From Calocera cornea HHB12733 (taxonomy: Eukaryota; Basidiomycota; Dacrymycetes; Dacrymycetales; Dacrymycetaceae): DNA of 64,000 nt. The stretch spans positions 252,460 through 316,459 of the forward strand of contig KV423921.1 of the NCBI GenBank assembly GCA_001632435.1, written 5' to 3'. Positions within the stretch are counted from its first letter, which is position 1; each line of letters starts with the position of its first letter. Position numbers and translations under genes: made by a program. The notes beneath the pieces are model-generated. The model made no database searches. It was not told where the DNA came from and saw only the letters and a list, made by a program, of their open reading frames with translations. Positions 14,387 to 52,480 of this stretch are shown here, piece after piece.

Positions 14387-14455
14387 AAGAACATGCTCAG
14401 TGAGGGTACCTGAAGTCAGAGTATGGTGAAGAGAAGTTTATGTTGTGTATTCTTG

Positions 14456-19692: not shown

Positions 19693-19697
19693 GAAAC

Positions 19698-29939: not shown

Positions 29940-30555
29940 CAAAAGCTCGGCGATCTTTGCTCCCGGTTGGTAGGGCTTTTGTCTCTGCTTGGGGTGTCTT
30001 TCTCCGGTTTCAACGGGGTCGTGTTCGCTTCCGTCCCCACCCTTCTTTGCTTCCGGGGGAGCAGTACTGCCCCCTTTTGTGGGGATATTTGCTTCCGCTT
30101 CAGGGGTTTTTCTGCTGCCCCCTAACTTTGCTCTCCCTTGAGATCTACTTCCTCCCACAGAAACACACACAACCCCTAGCGGAAGCAAAACACGGAGCGG
30201 AAACAAAATCTGAGGTGGAAGTAAACCTTGCAGTGGAAGCAAGTTTTGAACGGGCAGTCAATTCCCGGCGGAAGTAAATGTGCAATGGGAAGCAAACTAC
30301 TGTACGGAAGCAAACCAGATTACGGGAGCAACATCTTCCACGGAAGTATAACTGTGAGCGGACCCAAATTAGTCCCCCCGTTCGGAGGCAAACTACTGGA
30401 CGGGAGCAAACAGTACAGGAAAGCAAATAGCACGTTGGAAGCATGAAGTTAGCGGAAGCACATCTGTTAGCTGATACAAATTACAAAGCGGATGCAACTA
30501 GTTGCGGAAGTAAATACGTACGGGAGTAAATGCAAGCCTGGAAGCAACCAAACAT
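29940..30555. repeat. 18-bp-period CGGAAGCAAA array, locus D, bidirectional
   Basis: Up to about 30130 the units are on the minus strand (TTTGCTTCCG forms). From 30180 they are on the plus strand, with core starts at 30180, 30198, 30216, 30234, 30251 and 30269. The switch occurs within about 50 bases. The array lies between the bZIP promoter and the end of LCB3. An outer block at 30791-30813 matches those at the other loci. Confidence 0.85.
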
Positions 30556-30973
30556 GGGGATATATCGAGTCAGCAGAATTTAAAATGGGGAACAGCAGAA
30601 GCAGGGACTCCTTGAGACGGACACGAGAGTTGACGCAGGTATATTGGTAAGCTATGCAGAGTGAGCGACGGTCACGAAACTCGGATGTCTTCAAGCAGAA
30701 TATTCCGCCGTTGCGCGCCCTTCGCTGCGCTCCGACACCCGCGGGAATTGGGTGAAAGGCAGGGTCACGGCCTTTAGACCCAAAACTCCAAAAGCAAGGC
30801 GGCGTGCAGCTCGAATCATGCAACGTAATTTAAACTGTGCAAGAACATGCAGGAAAAACCACCGAGTCCCGACCTTGAGGGCGGTCAGTCCTTTTGAAAC
30901 GCGTTATCATCACCTGAGAGGGAAGTCAGCCGGATCTCCATTTGTTGTGAAACGAACGGCACGCGAACCAGCG

Positions 30974-32753
30974 TCATCCAGCACTCTTCACACCCCAGCC
31001 GAACACTTCAAACATGACGGGAAGGATCTCACAAGCAATCCAACCGATTCCGGCGTAAACCACCACCTTCGTGATCACTGCCAACAGTCTCAGTCACATC
31101 GCATCCTCTGAAAGAAGTGGAGGACCAACCGGATGCATCGTAATGCTTCACCGGGTCTGATCTGTCCACGATCACTTCTACATCGTTCAAGGGACTAGGT
31201 GACCTTTCTTTCCCATTTTGCAGCACCCTTTGTTTCGCAACGCTCCCGCTCGCGAGAGAAGCATGCAAGCTAGGCTTCGGACCAGGCTCGATCTTGGAGG
31301 GCAAGTCGATCAGAGACGGTATGGGGTGCAAACCACTCTCGTGAGGTACGGACGTGTATTGCCTGCAAACACGATCAGCTCCTGCTTCCGTGCTATCGAC
31401 TGGCAGAACTCACGTCGCAGGAATATAGAACCTTCGGTTAGGTAAGGTAATCACCTGGGAGATAACCCGATAGAAAGGTGGAAGTGCGGCCAACAGAATG
31501 GTCTTGGTGACAAGACGCCATAAGAAAATCGAAGCCACGCCAACTACCATTTTTAGCAGAGCGAACGCAGAGAAGGTCAACCAGTCGTTAAGACTCGCCA
31601 ACTGCCATCCTGGCGTCAGCGAAACAAAGAATCCAGAATCTGCGTCCAAGCCCGCTTGTGAACCGTGCCATCGTCCGAGGGTCGTGCCCATAACCACAGA
31701 CACAAACGCGATCGAATCTTCGAAGCAAGGACAATCATCAACCGGCTCCGGATGCTGATTGATGAGTAGAAGTCCCAATAAGACGGTTACAATAGGAACT
31801 GTGCTATGTATCGTAAGCCAGATCACTCAGATACGCTATGAGACTCACCGAAAGGACCCTTCGTGCCCATAAACTGCTCAATCTGGTCTTCCCACGTCCA
31901 CTGCACTGCCCAGATCATAGTACCAATGGTGCAACCGGCGATGCAGTCAGTGAAACTGTGCATCGCGCAGTAGAGCCGTCCGTAAACGATGCTGACAATA
32001 TAGAATGCCAAGAAGATCGAGGCTAAAGCAAGCCCCAGTGGCGGAAGAGAGAGACACAATGAGAATATGTATAACGCGACGGAAACGCTGTTTGTCGAAT
32101 GGGTGGAGGGGAATCCATATTCCAGATGATGTGTACCAATCGCTTCAGAGTCCCGTCAGTATATGTCGTTCTTGGAATTGGATAGTACATCATACTGAGG
32201 CGTGTGACAGGAGGTGAGAATGGACGGGGCGCGCAGATAGAGTCCTTTACAAACGTTGAAGCGTAGACGCCGAATGAAAGCACATGTACCAGTCTGTCCG
32301 TTGAATCTGTCAATGTCCATACTATCACATCGTAAAAGGCTAGGCTTACCCTCTTCCCATCACAGGATAGCCAAAGAAAAAGAATGCAGGCAACACAGTC
32401 ATGAAGAAGGTGTGCGTCCCAAGAGTTGAAGTGTAGACGAAATATGTGTCAAGCCATGGTTTCCGGACAACCTTCTGCCAGCTGCTCTTCAGTACTTTGC
32501 TTGACCTATGAGTGAGCTTAAAGCATGCCTGCATTTGGGTTATCCATTCCGATTCGGTTCTCAGGTTCCTGACGATGAAGCGACGAATTGCTGCCCTCCA
32601 AGGAGGAAGCGCATTGTCGTAGACAGCGTCCGGTTGCGTGCCTGGTTCGACGACCAGTATCGCTGCCTTCTCCCCAGGCGGTGCAGGGGAGGGAGCCCTC
32701 GATGACAAGAGCGGCTGAGTATATGCAGATGTCGGCACTTGCAGCGTAGTCAT
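30974..32753 (-). CDS. LCB3: Sphingoid base 1-phosphate phosphatase (PAP2 family)
   Basis: An endoplasmic reticulum lipid phosphatase that dephosphorylates dihydrosphingosine or phytosphingosine 1-phosphate, the LCB3/YSR3/SGPP family. Several minus-strand exons are separated by introns of about 50 bases. All three PAP2 motifs are present: KDSICAPRP (KX6RP), YGFPSTHST (PSTH) and YGRLYCAMHSFTD (the RX5HX3D part). Hydrophobic spans surround them (FFMTVLPAFFFFG, ALASIFLAFYIVSIVYG, IVTVLLGLLL). The last exon reads VVVYAGIGWIACEILPVMFEVFGW and stops at 30974; that tail is typical of the fungal family. The ATG at 32753 is followed by a cytosolic head. Its 5' end is divergent from SWC5, about 100 bases away. 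Confidence 0.88.
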
Positions 32754-32852
32754 TGCCCAGACGATGCTGAGGAGCTCGTCCCGAGATGGTTCTGGACCGA
32801 GAAGACCGACACTGTAGGGTCGACGACGCCACCGCCTCTCCCTTGATCAATC

Positions 32853-33696
32853 ATGCAAGCTGACGTTTCGGACGAGGAGGATGAGGATTACAAACCTCCC
32901 TCGGTTGGTGAAAGTAAGTTGTTCTTGTCGTATCATGTAGAATGGAAGTTGATATGGCAATCTTTTGCAAGGTTCTGAAAGCGAGGCCGAACGGGCGACG
33001 AAGAAGGCGCGCATTGCCACGCCTCTCGCAACGGTGGACGATAAAGTCAACGCCGAGCAGTACGCCATAATTGCCTCTAGATACCTGCAGACATGTTGAG
33101 CTCTGAGTAGGAGCAGACAAGCGCTGTGGGAAGACTTTCAAACGTCAGTGGGCGGTTCATCTCGCGCAGATACGAAGGATATCCGCATGATTGAGATTGA
33201 GAAACGTTACAAGTTCGCAGGCAGAGAGATCACGTGCGCCCATTTCGACGTTTCTGCGCATTATTTCACTTTCTCACCTTAGCACAGAGAGAAGAAGATG
33301 GTACCTGCTGATTCTGATGAGGCAAAGGAATGGACGGCAAGCAAGACGTTGGGAGATGTGGCGAGCGGCCCAATCGCTACCGACAAGACAGCATTGCCGG
33401 AATCTTCAATTCCATCTCAAGCTGTGACTGTATCTCTATTGAACCGTCCAAAGCCTGGTCCGCGCCGGCCACGTGTCAATCTTACGTCCTCCAAGCCCAA
33501 AAAGTTGACAATGCTCGAGAAATCTGCTATGGACTGGTCAGCCCACTTAGCGGAAACGGACAAGTCAACGAAAGAGGAGCTCGAAGCGAATCGTCGTTCG
33601 GGAGGTTCGTTGGCGAAGCACGATTTCCTGGAGAGGGTGGGCGTTCGAAGACAAGATGAGGTGGAGAAGGATCTGGGAAAGAAGCGGCGACGTTGA
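32853..33696 (+). CDS. SWC5: SWR1-complex subunit SWC5 (BCNT/CFDP1 family)
   Basis: A component of the SWR1 remodeller that exchanges H2A for H2A.Z. The first exon, 32853-32913, is acidic (VSDEEDEDYKPP). The next segment has a KKARIA nuclear signal, and further exons give ALWEDFQ, EIEKRYKFAG and a long last exon with the BCNT domain: KPKKLTMLEKSAMDWSAH, then EELEANRRSGGSLAKHDFLERV and QDEV. Introns are about 50 bases; one donor at GAGCA/GTACGC joins to an acceptor GAGTAG to give EQSRQALWEDFQ. The acidic N-terminus plus a C-terminal BCNT block is the family layout. It is divergently arranged with LCB3. Confidence 0.88.
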
Positions 33697-33780
33697 TGTA
33701 TGAGGATTGTCGCAACATGGCTATAACATTCTGGACGTCATCAGTGCAGTGATCGCGTCCATGATCAGACCCATGACATG

Positions 33781-35032
33781 TTAGGACATATTGATTTGCC
33801 ATATTCGAAGGGATCCATCATCTCCAGTGCTCCCTAAGAGATGCGCACAACCGTCCCGTGGACACCAGGAGACCGCATTCACGTCTGAAACGCCATGGCT
33901 GTTCTCCTGCGTTGCGATCAGGCGAGCTTCTATCGATGCCCCTGGCGTACGCGACTGTGCCTCACTCAGCAGACCGACCTTTCGGGTCAAGGGAACTTCA
34001 ATGCGTACCATGTGCCAAACGTTGATTCTGCCATCGCCTGCTCCGCTGGCCAACCAGCCCAAATCGCCACTTCCAACGCCCCACGAAACAGAGTATATGC
34101 TGCGTTCATGCACACCCTGGAGCACTTCGACCGTCTGCCATTGGTCGCCATTCCGTTCCCAAATTCGGATGGTCAGGTCATCTGAGGATGAAGCAAGATA
34201 GTTTCCACAAGGCGAGAAGGCGAGGGACCATACGGTTGAGGTATGGTCACTTAGGGTTGCGAAAGGGTACCACTCGTCATCATGGTCGTCGTGGTATAAC
34301 TTGATGGTGTCATCGTATGAACTGGATGCCAGAATCTGATCTAGTGGTCAGTACATGCACATGCGGTTATGTTTTTAAAGCGATCCCTACGTCTTCCTTC
34401 GGATGCCAGGCAACACATTTCACGTCTTGTGTATGCTCCATCAGAACGCTACTGACCTCGTAATCATCGGGATATACTGGCCGGCCAACGCAATGAGGGA
34501 CGAGCTGGAAGATGTGCAAAAGAGGTACTCACTTGAAAATACCCAGACTGTCTTATCCCTACTGCATGTCGCGAGGAACTCACCTGACCTGGAGAACGCA
34601 ACGCATTTGCATTCGCTCTCAGGCCCTTCAATTCTCGTGATGCTTTCCCACTCCCCTCCTACTCCTGCGTCATCCTCCTCTTCATCGACCGGTTGCCTCT
34701 CCCACAGAATGATTGAAGAGTCAAAGCTTCCTGTTCCCAGCAGCGTTCCATCTGGGGACCACGCCAGAGTGCGGACGGTCTTGGTGTGTCCTGTGGATAT
34801 GGACGCGGAGAAGGCGAATGTTGGAACCGGGGACGCAGTGTATGAATATATCCGGACGGTCTTATCAGTTGAACAAGACGCGACGATGGGCTCCCCAGGG
34901 TTCCACGCTAACTGCCATGCGCGGTCAATGTGACCTGCAGAGTGAAGGAAGGACGAGTTCAACACGGGGTCGATGAACGTTCGCATTGGGCTTACCGGTC
35001 AGTTCTGCGATTTGTTCAATCGAGCCCGTCAT
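33781..35032 (-). CDS. CIA1: CIA1/CIAO1 cytosolic iron-sulfur assembly protein
   Basis: A seven-blade WD40 protein of the CIA targeting complex, which delivers Fe-S clusters to cytosolic and nuclear enzymes. Exon 1 (MTGSIEQIAELTG, ATG at 35032) joins to HIDRAWQLAWNPGEPIVASC, the family's opening. Blades follow with DKTVRIY, TVRTLAWSPDGTLLGTGSFD, CKCVAFSRSGEFLATCSRDKTVWVF and, in the last exon, SIYSVSW ... LASGAGDGRINVW and LLGSTGDDGSLRIWQINMS. The stop is at 33781. Several introns of about 50-60 bases separate the blades. The gene converges with SWC5 (85 bases) and diverges from HIS5. Confidence 0.9.
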
Positions 35033-35337
35033 CGTAATGAAGAGTGTGCGAGAGGAATCGGCTGGTGCCTCGACAAAGAAGCGCTTTAACTTGGCTGATA
35101 AAGATGGATGGAGCGGATTTCTACAAATCTGCCAGGTTGCAGACGGCCGATGTAAGCCGGTCGGATGGTCAACGTAATGTAGGGACAAGCCAAATCAGAA
35201 AGACCCTAAACTCGTGAAACTTGGATGGGCCATCCCTGACGAATTCCTCCAGCAGGTCGAGTCAGCGGCAAGCGATCCAAAGTCAACTACCTACAATACC
35301 GTACCCCCCTCGAGCAGTAGCAGTCGACCCGACCATC

Positions 35338-36644
35338 ATGCCCATTCATGGAGTCGTCCCGTCAACAAAGCCGACATACCCTCTTCACTTCGATCTCGAG
35401 TCAGTCATTCGGCCCAATATTCTCGCTCTCCATCCTTATCGATGTGCTCGCGATGATTACCAGTCCGGAATATTGCTAGACGCAAACGAGAATGCGCTTG
35501 GGCCCTCTATACCTTCAGCTGCTCTGGACAAAGAGCATCTCGACCTGGAGTTGCACCGCTATCCCGACCCTGCGCAGGTCGACATAAAATCACGGATAGC
35601 CAGGTTGAGGAACCTTCCAGGCTGGGAGTATGTATTCCTCGGCGTTGGGTCAGATGAGGTTCTCGATCTCCTTATGCGCGTCTGCTGCACGCCAGCAAAG
35701 GACAAGGTTCTCACCACTCCACCTACCTATGGCATGTATTCTGTTTGTGGACAGGTCAACGATGTCGCGTTGGTCAAAGTACCGTTGACCGTGGAAGGAG
35801 GAGCGTTTCAACTGGACCTGCCAAAGGTGAGCAAGCTATTGGTGGTATGAAACTACTGGTACTCATGTCCAGTCGTAGATCAAGTCAGCTCTAGAAAGCG
35901 ATCCTTTAATCAAGATGGTCTTCCTGTGTTCGCCTGGTAATCCCACTGGCACATTAATTCCCCTTTCTGACGTCAAGGAAATCCTCGAATTACCGGGTTT
36001 CCGTGGTATTGTGGTGGTAGATGAAGCCTACATTGATTTCGGTGGCGACGATGCCAGTGCAAGCTCGCTAGTGGAATCGTACGCCAATCTATGCGTCATG
36101 CAGACGCTCAGCAAAAGCTTCGGACTGGCTGCCATCCGGTGCGCTGTGCCTTGTTCCCTTGGGAGCCCGCAGACTGACATCTCAGCTCAGGCTCGGGATT
36201 GCCCTGGCACAACCACCTCTCATCCAAGTCTTATCCAATACCAAGGCGCCGTATAACATCTCAACGCCGTCTGCTCACCTGGCTCTGTCCGCCTTGTCTG
36301 ACGAAGCCCTGGATATTATGCGCCAGAAAGTCGCGACGCTTGTAGCATCACGAACAAAGCTACTGGAGGACTTGAAAGAATTGGCACCGCTTGGTCTTGC
36401 GCCTGCCATTGGCGGCAACCACGCCAACTTCTTGTTGGTTCCTGTCCTGAACCGTGCCGCCGGAACGCCGGATAGTGCCCGCGCTCTGAAGATCTACACT
36501 CGCATGGCGGAAAAGGAAGGCGTTGTGGTCCGCTATCGTGGGAACGAGTTCGGATGCGAAGGCTGCCTGCGTATGACAATAGGCACTGAACAAGAGAACG
36601 AGGCGTTGCTGGAGCGATTGAAGCAAACAATGGCAGAGATATAA
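35338..36644 (+). CDS. HIS5: Histidinol-phosphate aminotransferase
   Basis: A PLP enzyme making histidinol phosphate in histidine biosynthesis. Exons 35338-35826, 35879-36138 and 36191-36644 give 400 residues. It shows the family opening (FDLESVIRPNILALHPYRCA, LLDANENALGP), TTPPTYGMY, CSPGNPTGT, VVVDEAYIDF, the PLP-lysine segment TLSKSFGLAAIR (which spans the second intron), and the arginine-containing C-terminal FGCEGCLRMTIGT. The frame is open upstream to an ATG at 35221, but 35338 (MPIHGVV) already gives a longer leader than yeast HIS5, so it is preferred. Its upstream neighbour CIA1 is divergent. Confidence 0.92.
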
Positions 36645-36791
36645 AGAGGCTTAGCAGGTAACAGCATAGACAGGATATACATAGATGTCTGGTGTGTTGC
36701 ATAGATCTATAGAGAAAGTAGTGGAGAAGACGATGTCAGTGCATACAATGGTCCGCCCAGGATATAAGGGTATCACTTCACAAATGGTGGT

Positions 36792-39700
36792 CTAGTTGTA
36801 CAGTCTCTCATAGAAACACAGGTATGCCTTTGCCTTGAGAACTTCGTCGAAAGAAACCTGTTTCACAGTCGTATCGCTGATGTAGCACCATTGTCGATCC
36901 GACTTCTTCGAAGGTTCCTTCTCCTTCTCCTTCGCTTCAGCGGCAGCTCCAACTGCGGCTACGTTGGAGCCTGGGAGTGCTGTATATGCGATGTAGTGAC
37001 CCCCGAGCTGGATATCATAAGCACCAAGCTCCGTTGGACAAATATGGGTACGTACCATGCTACCAATATGAACAACCACCCCGTAAAGGCGGTACATGAG
37101 TGGTTCATCTTCTCGTCGGCCAGGCGGTGGCGCACGTCCCCTTCCGCTCTTCAGACCATAGTCTTCTCGACGGGGGGCCATAAATGGACCCATGTCAAGC
37201 ATCTCGGGAAAGCTGATGAAATCTTCGATCTTTTTGAGATTCCCAAAGAACGGAGTGGATGACTTGGACAGCTGCTCGAACCGCTTCAGATGTATCACCA
37301 GAATAGGAGGCGGAGAGGATATCAGATAGCGTTTGAGAGCGCGACGGTGAATGACTTGTTGTGACCGTGGAACACGTGGCTTGCTCGACATACGATCGAG
37401 GGGCAGGGGTGGGGTGGATGGCCGAGAAGCAGGCCTAGAACCCGATTCCGAAGGCGGCGCTGACGGCTCCATTTCCGATTCCACATAGTCACTATCCGAT
37501 GTCACGCCGCTATCCATATCTGACAATGGGCTGGGTCGGTGGGGGCGACGTCCCGTTTGTGGGACTGCGGGGAACAGGAAAGGGTTGCGCAAGTAGGTCT
37601 GGGGAGTTGGCGTGGACGGGTCGGTTATCGTTGGGCTGGGAGAGTGCTCGTCTGAAGTGTGTGTGGTCGTGACCTGAGGAATTCGGAACCCTCCCGGGAG
37701 CCCCGACGGCTTAGAGGGGGCCTGGGCGGTGTCGACGGCCATTCGGACATGGGAAGCGGGGAAACTCGAAGGAGACGAAACGACCGACGCGGCGAGATCA
37801 TCCTCGGAGTCGGCCATGGATATGGCCGACTGGGAGATCACCGAAGGTGGACGACTCGGAACGCTGATAAGAGACAGCTCACCCGAGTCTGCCCGCACCA
37901 TGGGCGGCGAGTGAACAGTAGTGAACGGCTCTTGGGGAGGTGAGGGAGGCGTCGCCGGTCGGCTGACAACGATCAGGTCGTTATCGTTATCCACAGCCAT
38001 CTCGTCTTCTGCGTCATCGTCATCATCGTCATCATCATCATCGTCGTCTTCTCGATCTTCGGACTTGCGTTTGTTCCCAGCGGCGTGAGCGATTTTCCAA
38101 CAGCGCCGGCAAGCGAAGGCGTTGTCCCCCTCCAAGACTTCCACAGCGGTGAACTGACGGAGACAATCCACAAGACCGTGACCGGAACCACCGAGTCTGA
38201 GCCAGGAAGTCTGCGAATGCTGCGGCAGTCCAGGCGGTATTGGCAATGCAGGGGCAGTGTCGGCCAATATACGAGTAATGTATGCGGCTTCGTCGTTAAC
38301 CTTCCTCCGAGCCGGTATGATTGTAGCGGAAGAACCTTTCGTTCGAGAATGTAGGCGTAAAGGATTGGGTCGCCTCGGAATGCTCTCTCTTGAGCGCCTC
38401 TCGTCGTCCGTAACGTGGCCGCTGGAAGGGGGCCGCAGAGAGGCGGAGCGCCTTACCTCCACCGTCCGAAGGACTTGCTCCCAGTCCGATTCCACTTCTC
38501 GATCGTCGCCCGTCCCGCCTTCCACCTCCGAGTGAGCCGCGCTTTTGTCATGTTCGTCACCGTGAGCCTGTCTGTCCTTCGGTCTGCCCTTGCCCCAGCG
38601 GATCGACAAACGCTTGGCCATTTTCTTCGCATCTGGCGCTGATCCGCCCAACAATCCGCCACCATTCGCCGTCGGTCTGGGCTCGTTAGAGGGCGCGGGC
38701 TCGACATCAGACTCCGCATTCCTGTCTTCGCCGTGCCGTTCGAGTCCAGCCAGAACCTCTGCAGAGTAGTGATCCGGGGGTAGAGAAAGAGGACGTCCAG
38801 ATCTGGCCGGTAGTCGGAAGAGCTGGCTGATGTTCTTTATGCGATCGCGCTAAAACAGTATTAACCGCCGTCATGAATGCGAAGAGCAAATGTAAGCGTG
38901 CCTTCCGCAGCTTCTCGTCGGACCGTATCGACAGAGACAGATCGGTGAAATCTTCGTACGTGTGGGAGACATGCTTGCACGTCTCGCATACGACCATGCT
39001 TGCGAGCGTGCCGCCGAAGACCTGGTCCACAAACGGGCGCAACCTCTCTTCCTCGGGGATGGGCATGGGCAAGGTCGGTATATTGCCGGAAGAGTCATTT
39101 CGCCGCAGCTGGGGTACTTCGCGCACGCTTCGTTTGGCCTTCTTGTTGGGCTTGGGAGGCGGCGGCTGGCGCTTCTTGATCACCTAAGCTGGGGTCAGAT
39201 TGCGCGACATGTGGCACGACGACGTAGTGCGCACATCATACTCTTCCATATGCATTGCATCAAGAAGGTGGCAGTAGAGCTCGTGGGCGTCTTGTTGCCG
39301 GAACTGCGAGACAGGGGTAAGAAGCAGTCAGGGCATGCCGTAAGCGGGGAACGCACGTCGAGATACTGCTCATACTTGTTGCCGAGCTGCTGCAGCACGC
39401 TTCTGCAGCCACGTCAATATATTGGCTTAGAAGAAGCATCGATGAGCACGGCTCACCTGGGAACGAGCGACCGCCTATCGCCGCCGTCTCTGGCCTTCCA
39501 AGACTGCTCCAGGAAGGTGATGTAGGACATACTTATCGGCATGGCCTGCCTGTCCGCATTCGGCGCACCATGTACCTCGGTAAGTGCGGGGCTCTTGTCG
39601 GGATGGACGGTGACGGGGAGGGAGTTGGCCAGAGCCTCGACTGTGGATTGGAGGAGGGAGCTTGCGATGAACTATTTCGAAGCCGGCGAAGTGAGCGGCG

Positions 39701-39830
39701 GCAGGCGAATGGGGAATGCATAGACCCTACTCACACATTGCATGACCGAGTTGAAGAAGCATGTGTTTGAGGTATTAACGAGGCCCGGTGGGTAGAGCGG
39801 GTCCTCCCTCGTCTCCTTCTTGGTGGCCAT
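36792..39830 (-). CDS. Ubiquitin carboxyl-terminal hydrolase (USP16/UBP-like, C19)
   Basis: A cysteine protease that removes ubiquitin. The ATG at 39830 starts MATKKETREDPLYP, followed by the Cys box GLVNTSNTCFFNSVMQC. Later exons give ANSLPVTVHPDKSPALTE, LGNKYEQYLDVR, VFGGTLASMVVCETCKHVSHTYE with DLSLSI, and a long last exon (36792-38654). The His box is QLGGHYIAYTALPG near the C-terminus, followed by RQWCYISDTTVKQVSFDEV, a standard ending. A CRRCWKIAHAAG segment suggests a zinc site. The middle is a disordered insert with a run of about a dozen aspartates (near 38015-38060) and many Ser/Pro. The order and the large insert fit the USP16/USP45 group. Several introns are about 50-60 bases. Confidence 0.87.
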
Positions 39831-40601
39831 GTTGGGCCGAGTTGGGCGCGGAAGGGAGAGGGAGGAGGAGGAGGAGGAGGTCGCCGTGCTCGTGGAGGAG
39901 GGGAGTGTATGGCCGGGGATGTGAAGCCGAGGATGGGGTAGTATAAACCCGAAGGGGCGGTGGGAAGCGGACCCTACTGCTGATGGGGCAGGCGATCCAG
40001 CGCGCTGATTGGCGTGCAGCGTGTGGGCCGAAGCGAGACGCGCCCTTTTGCTTTCCCCTTCGGCCCCCTGAAAGCACGAAGGGACGAAAGGGACAGTCAC
40101 ACACACGCACACGTCACCCAAGGCACCGAACCGAGCCCGGTCTCGTGGCTCCCATTGAACGTCCGCTCTGCTTCATATCATAGGGGACCGCACACCGACA
40201 ACCCCGTCACCGCAGCCTTCATCCGCTCCCCTCATCCTTACCTTTTCCGGCGCATCCTCCTCGTAATCCCAACGGCACAGCGCGTTGGGGCTGCGCCGCA
40301 TTCACCGCAGGATGAATACACCCGCCTTGGGTCATCACGCAAGGATAAGACCGGGCACGCGCAATCAACCCACTTGCCCTTGGCAGGCATGTGACCTTTC
40401 CTCGAGACGTGACGCGGTGGCATATAACCCCACAAGCCCGCGTGTGGAGAAACGCACAAAACCTTTGGGGTGTCTTTATCCAACTGAGCGAACCTGCTCG
40501 TCTTTTATGGCAGCAAGCAAGTAATGCGGCTGTCTATCCAAGAACATCTGGGTATCATGACCGAAGTTTAGAGTTCCGGCGGCGCCGCACCAGCTTCTCA
40601 A
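39831..40601. other. Intergenic region
   Basis: Upstream of the ubiquitin protease and downstream of the next minus-strand gene. A pyrimidine/purine-rich run lies at 39850-39900. I see no supported gene. Confidence 0.5.
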
Positions 40602-41638: not shown

Positions 41639-41829
41639 GTTCCTGCTCCTGTTGCGTTTTGCCCCTGGTTGCAGGTTACGACTTCCTGCAGCAGCTCTTG
41701 TGCCACTGAGGACGCGCTCCTCAGGATGCGCTGGAGGGCGATATGAACGGGCCTCGTCGCCCGATAGACATGTCGGGTCGCCCGTTACGTGAGAGCACGT
41801 GCCCGTAACAACCTGGGGCCTAGCATAAC

Positions 41830-42210
41830 TCAGTGCGGAAGTAAATGTAACGGAGCCAAATTAGAAAGCGGAAGCAGCTGCCAATGCGGAAGTAAATTCT
41901 CGATAGAAGCAAAGCACTATGCAAAACACAATGCGGAAGTAAAATATAGCGCGGAAGTAAGCACGGCTGGCGGAGGCAAAACCAGGCAGCGGATGCAAAT
42001 GGAACAGGGGATGCAAATCCGAAGAGCGGAAGCACATGTGAGAACGGAAGCATAGCATGCCACGGAAGCAAATCACAGAACGGAAACAAAAGCCATAGCG
42101 GAAACAAATGATGAAGCGGCAGCAAAATACGGAGCGGAGGCACAGCTTAGAGGGGTGGAACAGGGACCTACAAGCGGGAGCAAAGAAGACCTCCAAACGG
42201 AAGCAAGAGC
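41830..42210 (+). repeat. 18-bp-period CGGAAGCAAA array, locus E
   Basis: About 18 plus-strand units, for example CGGAAGTAAA, CGGAGGCAAA, CGGATGCAAA, CGGAAACAAA and CGGCAGCAAA. The outer block is at 42393-42415. The array lies between two divergent genes. Confidence 0.85.
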
Positions 42211-42479
42211 ACATGCCGACGGACACGGGAGTAAAGGGTGGTATATCTGCCACGTACTCTGAGCCATTGTTAGAATCTCGGAAGTCATCCAGCAAAGTGT
42301 GGCACCGGCCGCCGGGCCCACAGTCGGCGGGAAACAAGGGGAACGAGGTGAAAAGCAAGGTTACGACCTCCCTCTAGACCCAAACTCGCTTACGAAGCAA
42401 GGGTACGTGCGGCTCATACCCTTGAATGGAAGCAAATACACTCACACAGAGCCCCGAACGGTAGCAACGGCACAGGCAG

Positions 42480-44202: not shown

Positions 44203-47200
44203 ATGGACGGACCCATCTTCACAGCAAACCCCGCCGAGGATCACCTCCATCCCTTCTACTCCCCCCCGGACAGCAACCAGTACGCCTTCACCCCCGCACC
44301 CAATCACCTGCACCACACCCAACAGCACAACTCACACCACTCCTCTCCCGCCTCGGGCTCCACATCGGGTGCCTCCACCACCGACGACTCGGTCGGCGGC
44401 ATACACCCACGCACCCCTTCCCCCCCCGACCTCACCACACCGCTGGACCTCGACTCGTTCTCCTTCCCCTCCTTCCCCTCCACCGCTCCCCTCTCCGACG
44501 AGGCCTTCGCCGCCGGCCTCGTCAACTGGGACGGCCCCGTCGATCCCGTCTGGGGAAAATTCCTCCAGGCACAACCCCAGGTGCACGACATGCTGCCCAC
44601 CAACCGCCAGCAGCTGCCCAAGCAGGAGCAACAGCACCCTCCCCAGCAGCAGCACCAGCAGGGTGCGTTCAACCCCCAGCTCAGTCTGGGATCCTTCTCC
44701 CCGCATGATGACCAGTTCGTGTTCCCCCCGGACTTGAACGCGTTCGATTTCACCACCGCCCAGTATCCCGGCGGGCCTCCCTCCGCCAGCTCCAACGCCG
44801 ACATGCGCTTCCCGCTGTCTGGCTATCCCGACCCTGCCCGACACTCATCCGTCGGGTCGTCCACATCGGCCCACGCGTCTCCACCGTCGGCTCAGAGCTT
44901 AACCGGCCAGCAGCAGCAGCCCGGATATACCATGAACGCGCCAGGCTCGGGGGGCACACAGGCGCAACCCCTGCCCACCCCTTCGTCCGCCATGCCCATC
45001 ATGAAGTCCAGCCAATCCCCGCCTAGCCAGCCGACGGTTTCCTTCAATCTCCCCGCTGGCGCACAGGCCGGGCAGCAGGGCATCCCTGGCCAGAAGCAGC
45101 CAGCAAAGCGGAGGCTTACCCCGCACAACACGATCGAGCGTCGCTACCGGCGGAACCTCAACAGCTGTATCCAGTCACTCCGCGATGCGGTGCCAGCGGT
45201 TGCCATCCTAGACCGCGAGAGGTGGGGTGACCGCTGGGTGCCTGATGAGAGGGGCTATGTCGACGGCGTCCGGCGCGCTGGCAAGAACAGCAAGAGTGTC
45301 GTGCTCGAGAAGGGCGTCGAGTACATTGGGTATGCATTTCTACGCTATCAGACGTGTTACCGCGCTCACCTGCATACAGGGTCCTCAACCGCCGGGCCGC
45401 CCGTCTTGCGCGTGAACGTACCGCACTTCAGGCTCTGCTTTGTTCCTTCCCTCAGGGGCAGATGCTTTACAACCAGTGGGAGCACAGTTTCCTCCCCATG
45501 GACCGTCACATGTACGGTGCCGATGAGCTGTATCGCATCCCACACGGCATCCTTCTCGCCGAAGCCGGCATGAGCGAAGGCGATGCGCTTGCCCAAGCCG
45601 AAGAAGATGAGGAAGATGGCGAAGATTGGGATGATGAAGGCGACGACGAGGACGATGGTGGTCGCCGTGGCAAGCGTCAGCGCGTCAGCATGGCGGAAGT
45701 CGACGCCAGTGGCATGGTCGTACCCGCTCCGCCGCCTATGAACGGTGCCGAGGCCGAGCGCCGCAAGCGTGGTCGCCCGCGGAAGAACACCCAGCCTTCC
45801 CCGCCTCAGCAGCCGCTCCCCTCGCCATCGGGGATCAAGACGTCTCCGCCTTCGCTCAACCGTCTCTCTCCCGAGCAGCAGATGGCCGTTCAGCACCAGC
45901 AGCAACTCCAGATGCAACAGTTTGTACTCCAGCAGAGGCAGGCGCAACACCTGCAGCAGATGGCGGCTATGCAGCAGCAGCACGTTCAGCACGTGCAGTC
46001 ACAACTGCAGCCTGGTGCCAGTGCCGCCCGCGCGTTTGCTCAGGCCCAGCAGCAGCAGCAGCAACAACAGCAGCAGCAGCCCGGTGCTGCACAGCAGGCG
46101 CCCCGCTACCTCCTTGCGGCGTTCCTGTGCTTCTCTATCTTCCGCACCGGTGGTCCCTTCTCGCCAGCTCCTGCTGAGGCAGGTACGCAGACCGGAACTG
46201 TTCTCTCGCCCACGTGGGCCAAGACCGCGCTTGGCGCTTCGCCTTCCGTGCCGTCCCTGGGCGTGTACAACTGGCTCGATGTTGCGCAGCTAGCGGTCAT
46301 CCTCACTCTTTGCGTTACCCTTTGGTTCGGTGGCGGGATGAGCTGGACGCGTCCTCGGCTTACCAAGGTCGTTACGAAGGATGAAAAAACCGAGTATGCC
46401 GAACGCGCAATCCTGCGGCAACGTGGTAAGCGAAGACCATTTACCTCTGACCCACATTTCCTGATCAGCTTTCTTTGTAGGCCTCTTCTCCCGCGGTTAC
46501 GCTGCATTCTCGCTTCTTCCGGCGCTGTTCTTCCCGAGTTCGGTCGAAGAGCGTGCTCTGCTTGCACTTCTGCTCCCTAACTGGCCTGTAATACGATCTA
46601 TGGCTGCCTCTCTTTGGAGTGGAGCCGCTGCAGACATCGCCGACGAGGAAGACCAGTCCGGCATCGTCGACCCCGTTCTGCACGCTGCCTTCCACCTCGA
46701 GTTTCCCGAAGCCAAGGAGATCATCCGCCGCGCTACCCTGACTAAGGCCACTCAGAATGAGCAGCCTGGTCTATTCAACATACTCGCCCGCACTGCCATT
46801 CAGCAGCACTTGGCGGAGCAGGCCACCAGCCGATTCATCAGCGTTGCAAACATCGCGTTCAACCCCAAGGCTGCAGATGCCGAGGATACCGACTACGAGC
46901 TCGCTCACTGGGCAGAGAAGTCCGCCATGCAGCTCGGCGGCGATAGTCGGAAGCTCGTCGAGTTGTGGGACGATCTCGAGTTTGGCGTCGAGGCTGACGA
47001 TGTGGAGACTTCCATTTCGAACGGTCGACCGGACGAGGCGCGGTTGATGCTTGACGCTCTGGCGCTTCTGTACTCCTGCATCACACCCGAAGAGGAGCCC
47101 GAGGCCGCATCACGAAGGAGCATTGATACGTTGCGCCTCCGCCTCCGCCGCATCCTTGGCAATAAGACGTTCGACTCATCGATCCGTCTCGCGGATGCCC

Positions 47201-47244
47201 GTGATCGCGTCGTAGATCTCCTGGACCCGCGCCGGCGGCGGTAG
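44203..47244 (+). CDS. SRE1: SREBP homologue, membrane-bound bHLH factor Sre1
   Basis: A sterol- and oxygen-responsive factor that is membrane-tethered until cleaved. Exons 44203-45329, 45380-46425 and 46481-47244 give 978 residues. A Ser/Pro/Gln-rich N-terminal activation region is followed by the bHLH at about residues 306-380: HNTIERRYRRNLNSCIQSLR has the tyrosine in ERRYR that marks SREBPs, an extended loop, then KSVVLEKGVEYIG-VLNRR. Then come an acidic stretch, an AT-hook-like KRGRPRKN and polyglutamine. Two hydrophobic spans (YLLAAFLCFSIFRTG and LDVAQLAVILTLCVTLWFGG) fit the hairpin. The C-terminal domain is long, so regulation by a Scp1-type partner is plausible. Introns are 50 and 55 bases. 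Confidence 0.92.
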
Positions 47245-47569
47245 TCAATACCCCTTGATACCTCTACCGCCTTTTCCCCGGAACCCTGCCTTTTTGTATT
47301 ACCATACAATCGAACGGTTCCTCCGTGTGCCGCTGTATCGCTGTCTCTCCCAGGATATTTCATGTTTGCTCCAGGCGGTTGAAGAGCCTGCGGACTGTCG
47401 TAGCGTAGTTATGTGACTATGAACTGTTTCCGTAATCGTGTTCGCGAACCAAAGTATACCCACAAGGCCTAATCTGGCTGTGGACTCTCTGCTGAGGCGA
47501 TTTACCTACAGAACAACTACAACAGTTCCAAGCGAAGGCATTCGCTCAGTCGAGAACGGCAGACCGAAC

Positions 47570-48245
47570 CAAGTTTAGAGCGGAAGCAACGGAAGTAGTG
47601 TGTTGCACGGAAGCAGATTGAAATACGGAAGCAAATGCGAGGCGGAGTCAACTCCAGTCGGAGGCAAACAGCTCCACGGAAGCAGATTTGGGAGCGGGTG
47701 CAGACCATCGAGCGGAGGCAAAAAAGAGACAGGAGTAAACGGAAGTACAGTGCACAGCCCCAGCGGAAGGAAAATGCTGTCAAGTGGAAACAGGGACACC
47801 TTCAGAGGGACACAGCAGTGAAGGGAAGCAGACATGTCTTTGGGCTATGTTGTGGGGTAGAGGGCAGCCTATGCAAAAGGGAGCAATGATAAAAGCGGAG
47901 GCAAATGGTATAACGGAAGCAAAGTGGTCCACGGAAGCAAGCAACTGCCCAGCGGATGGAGATATTGTAACGGAGGCAAATGGCTTAGGGGAGGTAAAGT
48001 GAGAGTCAACGGAAGCAAACCCCCTCCCCCGGAAGTACATTTTACCGCCGATCCAGATCCGGCCGGAGACAAATGTTGCGGCGGCTGCGAACATACCTCC
48101 GGAAGCAATGCTTCTACTGAAGTAAAGAAGTAGCAGCGGAAGTAATTCTGTGAGCGGACGCAAACCAGAGTACGGAAACAATTTCATGCAACGGATGCAG
48201 ATATGTAACGGAGGCAAACCCTGGAGCGGATGCGAACATTATCGC
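47570..48245 (+). repeat. 18-bp-period CGGAAGCAAA array, locus F
   Basis: More than 20 plus-strand units lie between the convergent ends of SRE1 and the gene at 48615-49303. The outer block is at 48283-48305. Variants include CGGAGGCAAA, CGGAAGTAAA, CGGATGCAGA and CGGAGACAAA. Confidence 0.85.
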
Positions 48246-48614
48246 GGAGTCATGGCCTTAGTAGCCAAACCCAAAACCCCTGTCGAAGCAAGGGACGTGC
48301 AGCTCGATCGTCTTCATTATAATGCACACCGTCCATCCAGCAAATGCCTTAAATTCACGTGCCCAGCTATTCTCGATGCATGCAAGTGTCGTCGTGAGAA
48401 ACAAGACAGATCAGAAAAACGAAAGGAGACACCACTTATTGAGAAGCACGTCGCGCGTTTCGGCACGCCCATCCCCAACGTGCTTGTCCGAACGAATGGC
48501 TTCTTCCTCCGGGCCTTCGCGACTCGCTCGGGCACCTGATCTCACAAAGTCCACCATCCACAGCACGTATCCAGACGAACGTAATAAGTCATTTCCGAGG
48601 TCGTGAACCGCCTG

Positions 48615-49303
48615 CTAGCCATTCTGCCAACCGGTACCTCTCACCAGCCCTATTCGCGCGACTAGCTGTCGGTATTGAAGTGCTGCAAGCTTCCTGCTCC
48701 TCACTAGGTAGACAGTGCCCGCCACAGCGAGAAACACCAGGTTACACATCTACCCGTTCAATTAGGGGGTGTCCGATTACGACAAGCGCTGAAGAGAAGC
48801 GTACCACGAACTCCCAGTAGTCCGCCAACTCCTTGCTCACCACCTTCCCGCATGCTTCCCAAGCTGGCGTCTCTCCCACAATCTCTCCGTCCTGTCCAGT
48901 TCTCGGAAATCCCTCTTCTGTCGGCGGTAGTGACGAGTACGGTAAACAGTGTATTAGGCGGCGGTTACCAAAGGGTTGGCAATAAGGTTGGTCCAGCTGT
49001 TGCTCGCGTTAGGGCTCGGCTCAACAGGCACGAAGGCATGGACGCATACCGCTTCTTCCGGACATGGTTCGCACATACCAAACGGTCTACATACGACTGC
49101 TCCTGGCTCTATCTCAGACTGCGGCGGTAGTGAAGGCATGTGGCCGTCTATTGCATCGGCGCGGCGAAATAGGGAGCGAAGCGGGAGAGACAGAGATGTT
49201 GTGGGGCCTGGCGTGAGCAATAGTAATAGTCTGAAGGCCCATGTCAGGACACAATATCCCAGTGAGGTAAAACCACATACGTTAACAGTGGTAATGGCAG
49301 CAT
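48615..49303 (-). CDS. Small cysteine-rich membrane protein with signal peptide
   Basis: Four short exons on the minus strand, 49281-49303, 49050-49230, 48805-48996 and 48615-48749, with introns of 50, 53 and 55 bases, all join in frame and give 176 residues. The product opens MLPLPLLTLLLLLTPGP, a signal peptide. The lumenal or outer part has paired motifs, CRPFGMCEPCPEEA and YCQPFGNRRLIHC, then GETPAWEACGKVV. Near the C-terminus a hydrophobic span (CNLVFLAVAGTVYLV) is followed by a basic tail. I do not know its function; similar CQPFG...CEPCP proteins seem familiar from other fungi but I cannot name the family. The clean splicing and signal peptide make it a convincing gene. It converges with SRE1 and is divergent from SEC65. 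Confidence 0.78.
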
Positions 49304-49451
49304 TGTGGGTATCGCATGTGGTGAGGACGTCGGAGAGGGAGCCTGGCGCGTCAACCCCTCGGCGCCCAAATGAACTGCTCCCGCCGCACACGACCCTTCC
49401 TTCGGCCTGCACTGTCGTCGTTAAGCTCGCCGTCTCAGCAGTTCAGCCATC

Positions 49452-50432
49452 ATGGCCGCCCGCGCCTTCATAGAAGAGGAGTTCGATGATGATACCGACC
49501 TTCCGCTGCCCACGCATTCTCTGCCCAATACGGGTATGAGGGGCCCACTCTTGCAGGAGATTGACGATGAGGACGACGATGCGACCGCTGACGCGGACGA
49601 GGACGATGAGGAGGAGTACGATCCGAGGGAGGAGGTCGTTGCTAGCGGCAGCGGGAGCCGCCCCCCTGTGTCCACGCAACAAGCTCCAAGAGGACCAATC
49701 ATTAACCGAGAGACGACGAAGAGGTGCGTTCTTGCTCTCCTTCGACCTCTGTGAACCCTTCGCTCAGCGAGGTTGATCTAGGTGGACAACTCTGTATCCT
49801 ATATACATCGATGCGAAGCGACCGCTGCATAAGAACGAGCGTCGCGTACCGCGTACAGCCTCTGTGTGGTGGCCATTGAGCTCGGACATGGGCGAGGCAT
49901 GCGCGCGGATGGGCTTCAGCACCCTTCATGATGTGCGTGCTCCAGATCGTGCCAGTGACTGCAACTGACCGATGCTCGATAGCAAGGAAAGCGGCATCCG
50001 AAGGACTGGGAGAACCCCGGGCGTGTAAAAGTGCAGTTTAAGAAAGACGGGAAGCTGGTCAATCCAGCGATCAAGACGAGTGTGTACTGTGTGTTTTGAG
50101 CTTCCAACTCCCTGACCTCTGGTGTAGAAAAGCAACTCCTTCTGCGCGTCAGCGCCTACATCCACAACAAGCGCCCCGAGTCCGTGCCGACGCCCGAGAC
50201 TTCCGCACCCACCAAGAATGTCAAAGGCATCACGAAGACACCCAGGCCGCCCGAACCCGTCCCGCCGATGAACTTGCGCCTGCCAGCCAACTCCCCCCTC
50301 GTGGAGACGGGCATGCTGGTGGAGAGTATGAAGCAGAGCCTGGCGAGTGAGAAGGGCCAGCCGGGGCCGGGGCAAATTGAGGGGGGTGGGGCTGGGAAGG
50401 GGAAGAGGAAGGTCATTAGGGTGAGAGCGTAG
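49452..50432 (+). CDS. SEC65: SRP19/Sec65, signal recognition particle subunit
   Basis: Binds 7S RNA and promotes SRP54 loading during SRP assembly. Exon 1 (49452-49723) encodes an acidic head (EEEFDDDTDL ... IDDEDDD). The next exons read TTLYPIYIDAKRPLHKNERR, SVWWPLSSDMGEACARMGFS, QGKRHPKDWENPGRVKVQF with KKDGKLVNPAIKTKKQLLL, the SRP19 fold. The C-terminus ends in a lysine/arginine-rich tail (GKGKRKVIRVRA). Introns are about 50-55 bases. Fungal Sec65 proteins have extended ends like these. It is divergent from the preceding small membrane protein, with starts about 150 bases apart. Confidence 0.9.
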
Positions 50433-50638
50433 TACGCCGACGCTGATGGTTGGACGTGGCAGAATTGAGCAATGCCCTACTATGTAACTTCGCTGTTAAG
50501 ATGAAACGCGCACCCCATCAAATGCATGACATTGAATCCCGAACTACCTGAACGACATCAAGATCGTAAAACCGCAGATAGACCGCAAATAAACATCACC
50601 ACTCTCCTTGGCTCAACGGTGTTGCACACCGGGCCTAC

Positions 50639-51170
50639 CTACTCCTTCTTTGTCACCGTCTCTGCAGGAACACCAGTGAAAAGGGTATGCACTACGGCGC
50701 CCCAGCAAGCGACATATATGAGACCTCCGACCGCATGAGCACCTGTAACAATGGCCTCCTGCCAGGCCGTCGCGCCGGTGGAGCCGGACAGTTGAGCCGC
50801 CTTGCGAACGCCGATCAGGTTAACACCCTACACAGCCGCGACCATGACTCACGATAGGGAGGATGCCTTTGGCACCCCAAGCGGCGTTCGCACACTCGCT
50901 CAGTACGCTCGCCCATAGCCACCAAGGCGAGATTTGGAGGATGATCCTCTTCCACGCTCCCTTCAGCTTGACGACGTCCTCGAAGCAAAGGATGACCCCG
51001 ATCAGCATGAGCGACATCGAGTTGCCGGTCGCGCCGATGTGGGCTGTGAGCGCCATCCGGGGATAAGGCCAGTTGGGAACGGTAAAGCCCCAGCAGAGGC
51101 CGAAGAGCATAAGGCTGGATCCATGCCGCAGGGCGGAGAGTGCGAGGACACGTTGGGCAGAGACCGGCAT
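50639..51170 (-). CDS. Hydroxylaminobenzene mutase-like membrane protein
   Basis: Two exons, 50853-51170 and 50639-50800, with a 52-base intron, give 159 residues with four hydrophobic spans. It reads SSLMLFGLCWGFTVPNWPYP, then PRMALTAHIGATGNSMSLML, then ANAAWGAKGILPI-AAQLSG and GATAWQEAIV. These match bacterial HabA/HabB in order: the NPRMGLSAHLE-like block, and AAVWGAG..MMPIAG followed by AWQE. HabA-type enzymes rearrange hydroxylaminobenzene to aminophenol; whether the fungal protein does so is unknown. It converges with SEC65 (about 200 bases) and is divergent from the aldolase gene across array G. Confidence 0.8.
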
Positions 51171-51764
51171 CTTCGCTGGCGTCGTGTGCTGCGCCTTGAT
51201 CAGTTATCGAGATGGTCTCCGGGATCAGGAATTGGCGAACCCCTGGAAGACTCGAACCAGTACCTGAGCAGCTATTTGAGGTCCAAAGGACATAGCAATA
51301 GACTCGCATCACATGCCAGTTTATCCAGACAGAATCAGGGCCGGAGCAACACAGAAGACCACCGGAAACAGCATAGAGCCGTGCGCCAGTGAGCAGCACC
51401 CTTTGTGGCTGCTGCTAAGACAGTTCTCATGCAGTGATCCGGAAAGGGGCTGCTTCCATGAACCTTGGGGCGCTGACAGGGGAGTCCAATGAGATCGACA
51501 ACATGACACTGAGCAGGGTCTCCGCCAAGCAAAGCCTCGGGGTCGGAGCCTGCGAGTGCTATGCGTGCCGGCGACCGTGAAGAAGCAATGCCAACCCTGT
51601 AGGCAACAGGCCGCCCATCAACACTGGTGCCATGGAAGCAAGTAGTCCATGTCCCAATGTCACCAGTGAGCAAGAGCGGATTTGTTGTACTGCTAACTGA
51701 GGCTGTTGCCCGCTATACTGTATGTAGCATGTCAACTTGTGTCCGCCGGGAAGTGCACTGCCCC
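51171..51764. other. Intergenic region
   Basis: About 600 bases with only weak open frames. I see nothing supportable before array G. Confidence 0.5.
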
Positions 51765-52480
51765 AGCAAGCGGAAGCGGAAGCAAAAGAACTGAGCGGAA
51801 GCAGAGTACTGATGCCGGATTCGACTGATTAGACAGAAGCATCCATCAGATGATTTGCTTCCTCCCTTTGCTTACACCTCAGCAAAGAAAAGAAGCAAAC
51901 TCAGGGGAGGCAAAGAGTACCACGGACACAGATCTCAGGGCGGGCAGAAGGCGGAAGCACACATTGTATCGGAGGCAGATGATTAGCAGAGGAAAAGAAT
52001 TTTGGAGGCAGATATTTTGTGACAGAGGTCTTCTCGTGACGGAGGTAAACTTTGGAGAGCAAGAGGAAACCTTGGCGGATACAGATTTTTAGCGGAAGTA
52101 AATGGGAGAGCGGACGCAAATGACATAGCGGAAGTAAAGAAGATAGCGGAGGCAAAGGTCAGTGCGGACGCAAAAATGCAGCGGAAGCAAAAGAAACAAT
52201 GGATGCCAAAAATTCGGAATCAATTAATCTGGCGGAAGCAGATCTTCTTGGCAGAGGCAATTCTCGTAGACCCTGCAATTGGGAACGCAGATGCAAACCG
52301 CAGCCCCAAACAACGTCACTGGCGGAGGGCAAAGACCAACCCGGAGCCAAACCATCCATAAAGGAAATAAGGACCACCAGCGGTGATAAAAATGCGGGAG
52401 CGGAAGTCTCATTCTGCTTCCGTCTGGCCCCTTCTGCTTCCGCTCATGCTCTGTCCAAAGAGCCCTTTGCTTCCGCTCGA
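51765..52480. repeat. 18-bp-period CGGAAGCAAA array, locus G, bidirectional
   Basis: Plus-strand units run to about 52400, with core starts at 52093, 52111, 52129, 52147, 52165 and 52182 (steps 18, 18, 18, 18, 17). From about 52415 the units are on the minus strand (CTGCTTCCG, TTTGCTTCCGC). The array lies between two divergent genes. Confidence 0.88.

What the first reader, a model, noticed from the sequence alone, without database searches (positions are those of the whole stretch)
29940..52480. An undescribed repeat family: 11-base CGGAAGCAAA-type core every 18 bases, spacers unrelated
Seven intergenic loci carry arrays in which a core (C-G-G-[AG]-N-[GA]-[CT]-A-[AG]-A) repeats at 18-base steps while about seven intervening bases differ in each unit. 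Steps measured at locus G are 18, 18, 18, 18, 17, and at locus D 18, 18, 18, 17, 18. The core varies by single substitutions, most often at its fourth to sixth bases. Ordinary minisatellites drift evenly over the whole unit; here the core is held while the spacer is free. This suggests selection on a bound core, or an array built by repeated copying of a short motif. The arrays are about 400-700 bases and none lies within a gene.
Basis: seen in the sequence. Interest (0 to 1): 0.88.

Follow-up and report, generated by a model that had tools for sequence, protein, structure and literature searches.

The report
Binding-site arrays in fungal transposon ends
The 18-base-step repeats are real and scattered through this fungus's genome; they are best read as the inner parts of non-coding jumping elements that share their ends with KDZ-type transposons, the repeated core probably being the site their transposase grips.

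Summary
A core close to CGGAAGCAAA recurs at 18-base steps with unrelated spacers: lag-18 self-match 0.433 against 0.282 in shuffles. The double core is found 1,250 times in the 32.1-Mb genome, 7 for the reversed pattern. The fungus is close to Calocera.

The arrays are not free-standing. Neighbouring opposite arrays run minus-then-plus in 11 of 12 cases. Outside them lies a ~105-base inverted end. The same end bounds two ~10-kb elements that carry a CxC5 cysteine cluster (the KDZ-associated type), with exact 8-base target duplications. One of four two-ended array elements inspected, 837 bases long, shows a 7-of-8 duplication. The array core sits inside 6 of 6 CxC5-linked ends, once letter for letter.

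Best reading: non-autonomous, foldback-like relatives of CxC5/KDZ transposons whose subterminal arrays multiply a motif of the end, most likely the transposase's binding site. Shown: shared ends, duplications in three elements, orientation, kept core. Inferred: binding and mobilisation. Arrays lie near transposase genes no more often than by chance. New variant of a known kind.

The parts
29839..30696 (.). Non-autonomous inverted-repeat element: end, minus array, plus array, end
   Evidence: Inverted ends 29843-29911 / 30619-30682, 71%; model hits 29839-29911 (-) and 30620-30696 (+) (both were among the model's training sequences); minus cores then plus cores. No target duplication recognisable.
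29839..29911 (-). Left CxC5/KDZ-type terminal inverted repeat
   Evidence: R1 model 57.7 bits (training sequence); contains GGACACGGGAGTAAACGGAGGTATAT without mismatch
29956..30097 (-). Left array, 4 cores pointing left
30180..30548 (+). Right array, 18 cores, mostly 18-base steps
30620..30696 (+). Right CxC5/KDZ-type terminal inverted repeat
   Evidence: R1 model 52.3 bits (training sequence)
30697..30813 (+). Distal tail (about 115 bases) shared with other copies, ending in the motif GCAAGG..CGTGCAGCTCG
   Evidence: alignments A3, A4
41836..42235 (+). Array of 20 cores; half element, no left end found
42221..42293 (+). CxC5/KDZ-type terminal inverted repeat, followed by the distal tail to about 42415
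   Evidence: R1 model 40.1 bits (training sequence)
47581..48236 (+). Array of 24 cores
48262..48306 (+). Distal tail of the preceding array; no terminal repeat recognised between
   Evidence: Alignment A3; this copy supplied the motif and has 1 mismatch to the pattern
51890..52351 (+). Array of 15 cores, followed by three minus cores (52413-52475) in the unexpected order; decayed element
10632..11220 (-). Array in the left arm of a perfect 1821-base inverted repeat (10340-12160)
21004..21592 (+). Array in the right arm (20064-21884) of the same inverted repeat

Best explanation
The arrays are subterminal repeats of non-coding DNA transposons (MITE-sized to foldback-like) that are parasitic relatives of CxC5/KDZ-type transposons of the same genome. 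SHOWN: (1) two CxC5-carrying elements, 9.79 and 10.58 kb between their ends, have ~105-base inverted ends and exact 8-base target duplications. (2) The same ends, pointing outward, flank arrays far above chance. (3) One array element is bounded by these ends and a 7-of-8 duplication. (4) The ends of CxC5 elements themselves hold the array core, followed at a 10-base step by a second, weaker copy. (5) In arrays the core is held and the spacer is free. INFERRED: the core is the site bound by the transposase, perhaps through a zinc-binding cysteine cluster. Tandem duplication in 18-base steps multiplied the site inward from the end. Each successful jump selected for copies with many intact cores, while spacers drifted. 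Many sites at each end would raise the affinity and specificity with which a transposase supplied in trans gathers the ends, as proposed for Galileo/Foldback elements and known for maize Ac/Ds.
For: CxC5 elements: C5 194450-204239 with duplication GCACACGA 8/8; C90 25196-35772 with GGAGATGT 8/8. A CxC5 hit lies inside both; C5's is E = 9e-26. Two more CxC5 loci, C18 and C75, have one such end at the matching side, 7-9 kb from CxC5. Array element L020:8913-9749 (837 bases, 15 minus then 10 plus cores): duplication TAAACTCG/TAAACCCG, 7/8. Of 36 distinct end-motif hits in the genome, 15 lie within 1.5 kb of a listed double core (0.30 expected) and 15 of 15 point outward. Seven of the 15 come from loci already seen when the patterns were written; eight are new, two of these being the two copies of one inverted pair (C143). 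Five more of the 36 belong to four CxC5 elements. Minus-then-plus order: 11 of 12 neighbouring opposite arrays at 4 or more cores, 9 of 10 at 5, 7 of 7 at 6. Core with at most 2 mismatches in 6 of 6 CxC5-linked ends, 0 of 5000 shuffle sets (the six ends are related, so not independent); exact core in C90_left, 1 of 5000 shuffles. Core held, spacer free, step 18.
Against: No CxC5 or KDZ gene lies among arrays beyond chance: 2 of 31 KDZ loci and 1 of 27 CxC5 loci are within 12 kb of a listed array place, 1.5 and 1.3 expected. No run of cores at 17-19-base steps occurs in the stretches of CxC5 elements read (nine loci, about 22 kb, of which about 4.3 kb masked). Only 4 of 27 CxC5 loci have a recognised end within 11 kb. 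Sixteen of the 36 end hits are near neither a listed double core nor a CxC5 locus. Only 14 of 33 array blocks have a recognisable end within 300 bases, and the model used was partly trained on such loci. Of four two-ended elements inspected, one shows a target duplication (L020 yes; L015, L046 and the window's not). KDZ duplications are not always 8 bases: 4-8 for Cryptococcus KDZ2/3, 7 for Laccaria Kyakuja, which has no inverted ends. The distal tail beyond the end in some copies is unexplained. The catalytic KDZ domain is seen only weakly beside CxC5 (E = 0.03, under the Pfam cut-off). The interiors of the C5 and C90 elements were read only in part or not at all. No binding was measured.
Confidence: 0.75

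Rival explanations
1. The array elements belong to a different, unidentified transposon family (perhaps the large inverted-repeat elements with 1.8-kb arms). They picked up a CxC5/KDZ-like end by recombination, and the arrays serve that other transposase.
For: Arrays are not found at CxC5/KDZ genes beyond chance. Some arrays run into the distal tail without a recognised KDZ-type end (47581-48306; the arms of the 10340-21884 inverted repeat). Paired inverted copies of the arm repeats recur at C73, C63 and C143, and identical inverted array pairs at C37, C65 and C143.
Against: The core is inside the CxC5 elements' ends and 15 of 15 array-linked ends point outward. One array element has the 7-of-8 duplication exactly at the KDZ-type end. 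In eight ORFs scanned between the window's arms only RNase H-like (reverse transcriptase) and DDE-type transposase domains were found above Pfam's cut-off.
Confidence: 0.13
2. Plain minisatellites spread by slippage and unequal crossing-over, with no function for the core.
For: One array carries perfect 18-base tandem copies (C8:199718-199853), and adjacent spacers are slightly more alike.
Against: Spacers do not align between arrays (0.30) while the core is kept; the core recurs inside transposon ends; orientation is fixed relative to the ends.
Confidence: 0.06
3. The arrays bind a host factor (transcription, silencing or replication) and were spread by transposons, the binding being the host's use or a silencing target rather than transposition.
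For: As far as tested the arrays hold no gene, and a regular array of sites is a typical landing platform. No protein-binding data exist either way.
Against: The same core lies at a fixed place in the ends of CxC5 elements, where a transposase site is expected.
Confidence: 0.06

Closest known systems
KDZ (Kyakuja-Dileera-Zisupton) transposons of fungi, e.g. KDZ1-3 of Cryptococcus (PMC12810828 and PMC12730594, passages seen)
   Same: 8-bp target duplications (KDZ1, Zisupton), inverted ends over 100 bases (139-241 bp there, ~105 here), ~9-11 kb copies, cysteine-cluster protein
   Different: 'Subterminal' and 'tandem repeat' occur 0 times in the main texts of both papers; the cluster there is CxC1, here CxC5; KDZ2/3 give 4-8-bp duplications and Laccaria Kyakuja 7 bp without inverted ends
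CxC5/CxC6 'insert' in Pleurotus ostreatus MSH4 (PMC7641404, passages seen)
   Same: CxC5-encoding mobile DNA, including identical copies in inverted orientation some kb apart
   Different: The authors found no KDZ transposon beside CxC5/CxC6 and suspected Copia involvement; here two CxC5 copies are bounded by inverted ends and 8-bp duplications
Galileo / Foldback elements of Drosophila (PMC3688188, abstract and passages seen)
   Same: Long internally repetitive inverted ends with several transposase (THAP) binding sites; proposed to give specificity
   Different: P-element superfamily transposase; two further sites within long direct repeats, not tens of short cores at an 18-base step
Maize Ac/Ds (PMC3260210, passages seen)
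   Same: Non-autonomous elements sharing terminal repeats and a short subterminal motif (AAACGG) that the transposase binds cooperatively
   Different: hAT superfamily; no regular array of fixed step described in the passages seen
Ordinary minisatellites
   Same: Tandem arrangement, some slippage copies
   Different: Only about 10-12 of 18 bases are kept, and the arrays sit at transposon ends

Membership tests
KDZ transposon (the CxC5 elements at C5 and C90) | 8-bp target site duplication (usual, not universal, in KDZ) | tested here: met
   GCACACGA at C5 and GGAGATGT at C90, both 8/8; published lengths
KDZ transposon (the CxC5 elements at C5 and C90) | Terminal inverted repeats | tested here: met
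   C5 ends 73% over 103 columns, C90 ends 81% over 99
KDZ transposon (the CxC5 elements at C5 and C90) | KDZ transposase catalytic domain (PF18758) | tested here: inconclusive
   Only at C75: E = 0.03, 14.5 bits against a cut-off of 26.6, beside CxC5 with E = 3.3e-24; no PF18758 hit within 10 kb of any of the 27 CxC5 loci in the genome search
Non-autonomous KDZ-related element (the array elements) | Shares terminal inverted repeat with a CxC5/KDZ-type element | tested here: met
   recognisable for 14 of 33 array blocks
Non-autonomous KDZ-related element (the array elements) | 8-bp target duplication at the ends | tested here: inconclusive
   1 of 4 two-ended elements (L020, 7/8); not seen in the other three, which are decayed or carry the distal tail
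Non-autonomous KDZ-related element (the array elements) | No transposase gene of its own | tested here: met
   The four two-ended elements are 299-854 bases long; large inverted-repeat elements were not tested beyond
Foldback/Galileo-like element | Long inverted ends made of internal repeats that bind the transposase | tested here: inconclusive
   Structure met (minus-then-plus arrays; 1.8-kb arms); binding not testable here; superfamily differs
Plain minisatellite | Whole unit, spacer included, is related between copies | tested here: not met
   Spacer identity 0.30 between arrays

The most novel reading that the evidence does not exclude
A genome-wide population of foldback-like parasites of a CxC5/KDZ transposon has evolved 'super-ends': 10-30 copies of the transposase's own binding core at a fixed 18-base step. 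This lets a multimeric transposase complex form on each end and outcompetes the autonomous element for its enzyme. The same arrays build large inverted-repeat elements (10 kb and more) with kilobase arms kept identical.
Probability: 0.35. Interest if true: 0.65.

Novelty: new variant of a known kind. Interest (0 to 1): 0.52.

Why it matters
As far as I know (recall), the DNA site used by KDZ transposases is not established. Subterminal arrays of this kind did not turn up for KDZ in my literature searches (open-licence papers only, and the original Zisupton paper is not held). The arrays are a natural selection experiment that points at the site: a ~10-12-base core. Two CxC5 copies here sit between inverted ends and 8-bp duplications, which bears on the doubt in Pleurotus about what moves CxC5 genes (PMC7641404). 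The reading also accounts for at least 89 clusters of otherwise anonymous repeats listed in this genome (a lower bound, and ends were recognised at only part of them).

Tried and rejected
Free-standing repeat family or minisatellite: rejected on spacer divergence and on the shared ends. The 10340-21884 inverted repeat as the autonomous partner: of eight ORFs scanned there, one matches RNase H-like domains of reverse transcriptases and one DDE_1, and no CxC5 or KDZ hit falls in it; the arm borders show no convincing target duplication by eye. CACTA/Plavaka or Helitron origin: considered from the hairpin-like distal tail, dropped once 8-bp duplications and CxC5 appeared. Distal tail as the true end: no target duplication found by eye; left open. 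Helical phasing of the 18-base step: 18 is not a multiple of 10.5, so no simple phasing. Structure of the ends: RNAalifold gave no pairs on 16 mixed ends; on six CxC5-linked ends it predicts 25 pairs, 2 with a two-sided change, so no RNA is claimed. Literature search for the core letters: 78 papers hold the ten letters; the 20 listed titles are unrelated.

Selection to bear in mind: the twenty 10-kb loci L009-L028 are the first places's list (contigs C3 to C21), not a random sample; one of them (L014) gave no array. In one search the window's minus array (10632-11220, identical to the other arm) was dropped. In one search two hits in the C5 element (L049, L050) and two with E above 1 were left out. 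For some searches I collapsed the 79 places by hand to about 60 clusters, the 51 KDZ matches to 31 loci and the 31 CxC5 matches to 27. One search prints only its first 100 places, so 15 of 36 is a lower bound. At a threshold of 4 cores the three minus cores after the 51890-52351 array do not count in the order test; they are a further exception.
Full report
WHAT IS THERE. The window (G000:C8:252460-316459) belongs to a 32.1-Mb, 302-contig assembly. A 620-aa stretch is 84% identical to a Calocera viscosa ubiquitin hydrolase, so the source is a Calocera-like basidiomycete (class Dacrymycetes from recall). The core CGGAAGCAAA occurs 89 times with at most one mismatch against 3-6 in five shuffles. 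It forms six arrays and a relic in the window, four of the arrays in the finding's interval. In 39 arrays of the window and twenty further loci, self-match peaks at lags 18, 36 and 54 (0.433, 0.394, 0.366; shuffles 0.28). Units that were not selected by their own letters keep the ten core positions, while spacers are near background. Genome-wide, the double core with eight free bases is found 79 times strictly (control 1) and 1,250 times with up to three mismatches (control 7).

WHAT THE ARRAYS BELONG TO. Arrays are oriented. Where two opposite arrays are neighbours, the order is minus then plus in 11 of 12 cases at four or more cores, 9 of 10 at five and 7 of 7 at six: the layout of an inverted-repeat element. 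Beyond the arrays lies a conserved stretch, about GGACACGGGAGTAAACGGAGGTATAT...palindrome...TTGTCACGAAACTCGGAAGTCCTC. In the window it bounds the 29839-30696 element on both sides and the 41836-42235 array on the right. In the held loci 18 of 20 hits of a model of this stretch lie within 300 bases of an array block, 17 of them pointing outward; the blocks with such margins make up 13% of the sequence, and 14 of 33 blocks have such a hit (the model was partly trained there). As a less circular test, two short patterns of the stretch were run over the whole genome: 38 hits against 0 in controls, or 36 distinct ends. Of these, 15 lie within 1.5 kb of a listed double core (0.30 expected) and 15 of 15 point outward. 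Seven of the 15 are loci I had already seen when writing the patterns; eight are new, two of them the two copies of one inverted pair. Five further ends belong to CxC5 elements. Sixteen are near neither; at least two of these loci do have weaker cores inside (C13:201976, the L020 element, and C105, L046).

THE PARTNER. Two arrayless ends led to genes with a CxC5 cluster, the Pfam family described as associated with KDZ transposases (C75; C18). At C5 and C90 both ends could be read. C5: 194450-204239, ends 73% alike over 103 columns, flanked by GCACACGA on both sides. C90: 25196-35772, ends 81% alike over 99, flanked by GGAGATGT on both sides. A CxC5 hit lies inside each; of the C5 interior only 1.75 kb with CxC5 was read besides the ends, partly masked, of the C90 interior only what lies next to the ends. 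Of 27 CxC5 loci, four have a recognised end within 11 kb. Eight bases is the duplication length reported for Zisupton and Cryptococcus KDZ1; KDZ2/3 give 4-8 and Laccaria Kyakuja 7 (PMC12730594, PMC12810828; passages seen). KDZ1-3 are about 9-11 kb with 139-241-bp ends. The array element at L020:8913-9749 has the same ends and TAAACTCG/TAAACCCG as flanks, 7 of 8; three other two-ended elements (L015, L046, the window's) show no recognisable duplication, though all four have minus cores on the left and plus cores on the right (the window's left half holds one stray plus core, and the L015 element a single plus core).

THE LINK BETWEEN CORE AND END. At the inner edge of the CxC5 elements' ends stands the core, followed at a 10-base step by a second, mostly weaker copy, for example CGGGATCAAA-CGGAGGTAAA (C18) and CGGAAGCAAA-CGGGATTAAA (C90 left), the first of the latter being the array consensus exactly. 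A core with at most two mismatches is in 6 of 6 ends examined and in 0 of 5000 shuffle sets; the six ends are related to each other, so this is not six independent findings. No run at 17-19-base steps occurs in the nine stretches of CxC5 elements that I hold.

HOW IT PROBABLY WORKS. The motif in the end is most simply the transposase's recognition site. Non-coding derivatives that duplicated it in 18-base steps offer many sites per end. Cores are kept because only copies with working ends are moved, while spacers drift. Perfect 18-base tandem copies in one array (C8:199718-199853) show the duplication step. Galileo (several THAP sites within long, repetitive ends; PMC3688188) and Ac/Ds (cooperative binding to subterminal AAACGG; PMC3260210) are precedents in other superfamilies. 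Binding and mobilisation are inferred here, not shown.

WHAT DOES NOT FIT OR IS OPEN. Arrays do not favour the neighbourhood of KDZ and CxC5 genes: 2 of 31 and 1 of 27 within 12 kb, 1.5 and 1.3 expected. The catalytic KDZ domain next to CxC5 is recognisable only weakly, and genome-wide no PF18758 hit lies within 10 kb of a CxC5 locus; Pleurotus was reported to look alike in this respect (PMC7641404). Some copies carry a further ~115-base distal tail ending in a hairpin-like motif, some of them without a recognised KDZ-type end. The 51.9-52.5 kb array has three minus cores after the plus cores, against the rule. The identical 1.8-kb arms around 10340-21884, and inverted pairs at C37, C65, C143, C63 and C73, may be large foldback-like elements, homogenised arms or an assembly effect; I could not decide.

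VERDICT. This is a new variant of a known kind, interesting mainly because it points to the DNA site of a transposase group whose site, as far as I know, is not established.

Noticed in passing
10340-12160 and 20064-21884: Perfect 1821-base inverted repeat, arms 7.9 kb apart, around broken frames with RNase H-like and DDE_1 domains; identical arms around old DNA suggest recent conversion, recent inverted duplication or an assembly effect. Inverted pairs also exist at C37, C65, C143, C63 and C73.
   Followed up: partly
11837-12235 and 19690-20387: About 160-base tandem units at the inner ends of those arms, with relatives of 68-87% identity on 15 other contigs, some within about 3 kb of arrays (C5, C39, C143).
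   Followed up: partly
30697-30813, 42294-42415, 48262-48306: Distal tail shared by several copies beyond the KDZ-type end, ending in a CCCCTTGC-GAA-GCAAGGGG-like hairpin and GTGCAGCTCG; nature unknown.
   Followed up: partly
L049, L050, L052, L053, L030, L032 (ends of CxC5 elements): The ends contain a predicted palindrome (about CTCTGCRCCTCTGC..GCAGAGGYGCAGAG) between the cores and the tip; least regular in C5_right.
   Followed up: partly
G000:C8:199718-199853: Array with perfect 18-base tandem copies including the spacer, a snapshot of recent duplication.
   Followed up: no
whole genome: CxC5 loci (27) and recognisable KDZ transposase loci (31) are at different places, the closest pair 10.7 kb apart (C238): at least two groups of KDZ-like elements.
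   Followed up: no
1350-1432, 2764-2802, 5335-5380: Other short repeats (ACTCTACCGTACTCTCCTGT units; an inverted pair of 39 bases at 1394-1432 and 2764-2802), perhaps another small element.
   Followed up: no
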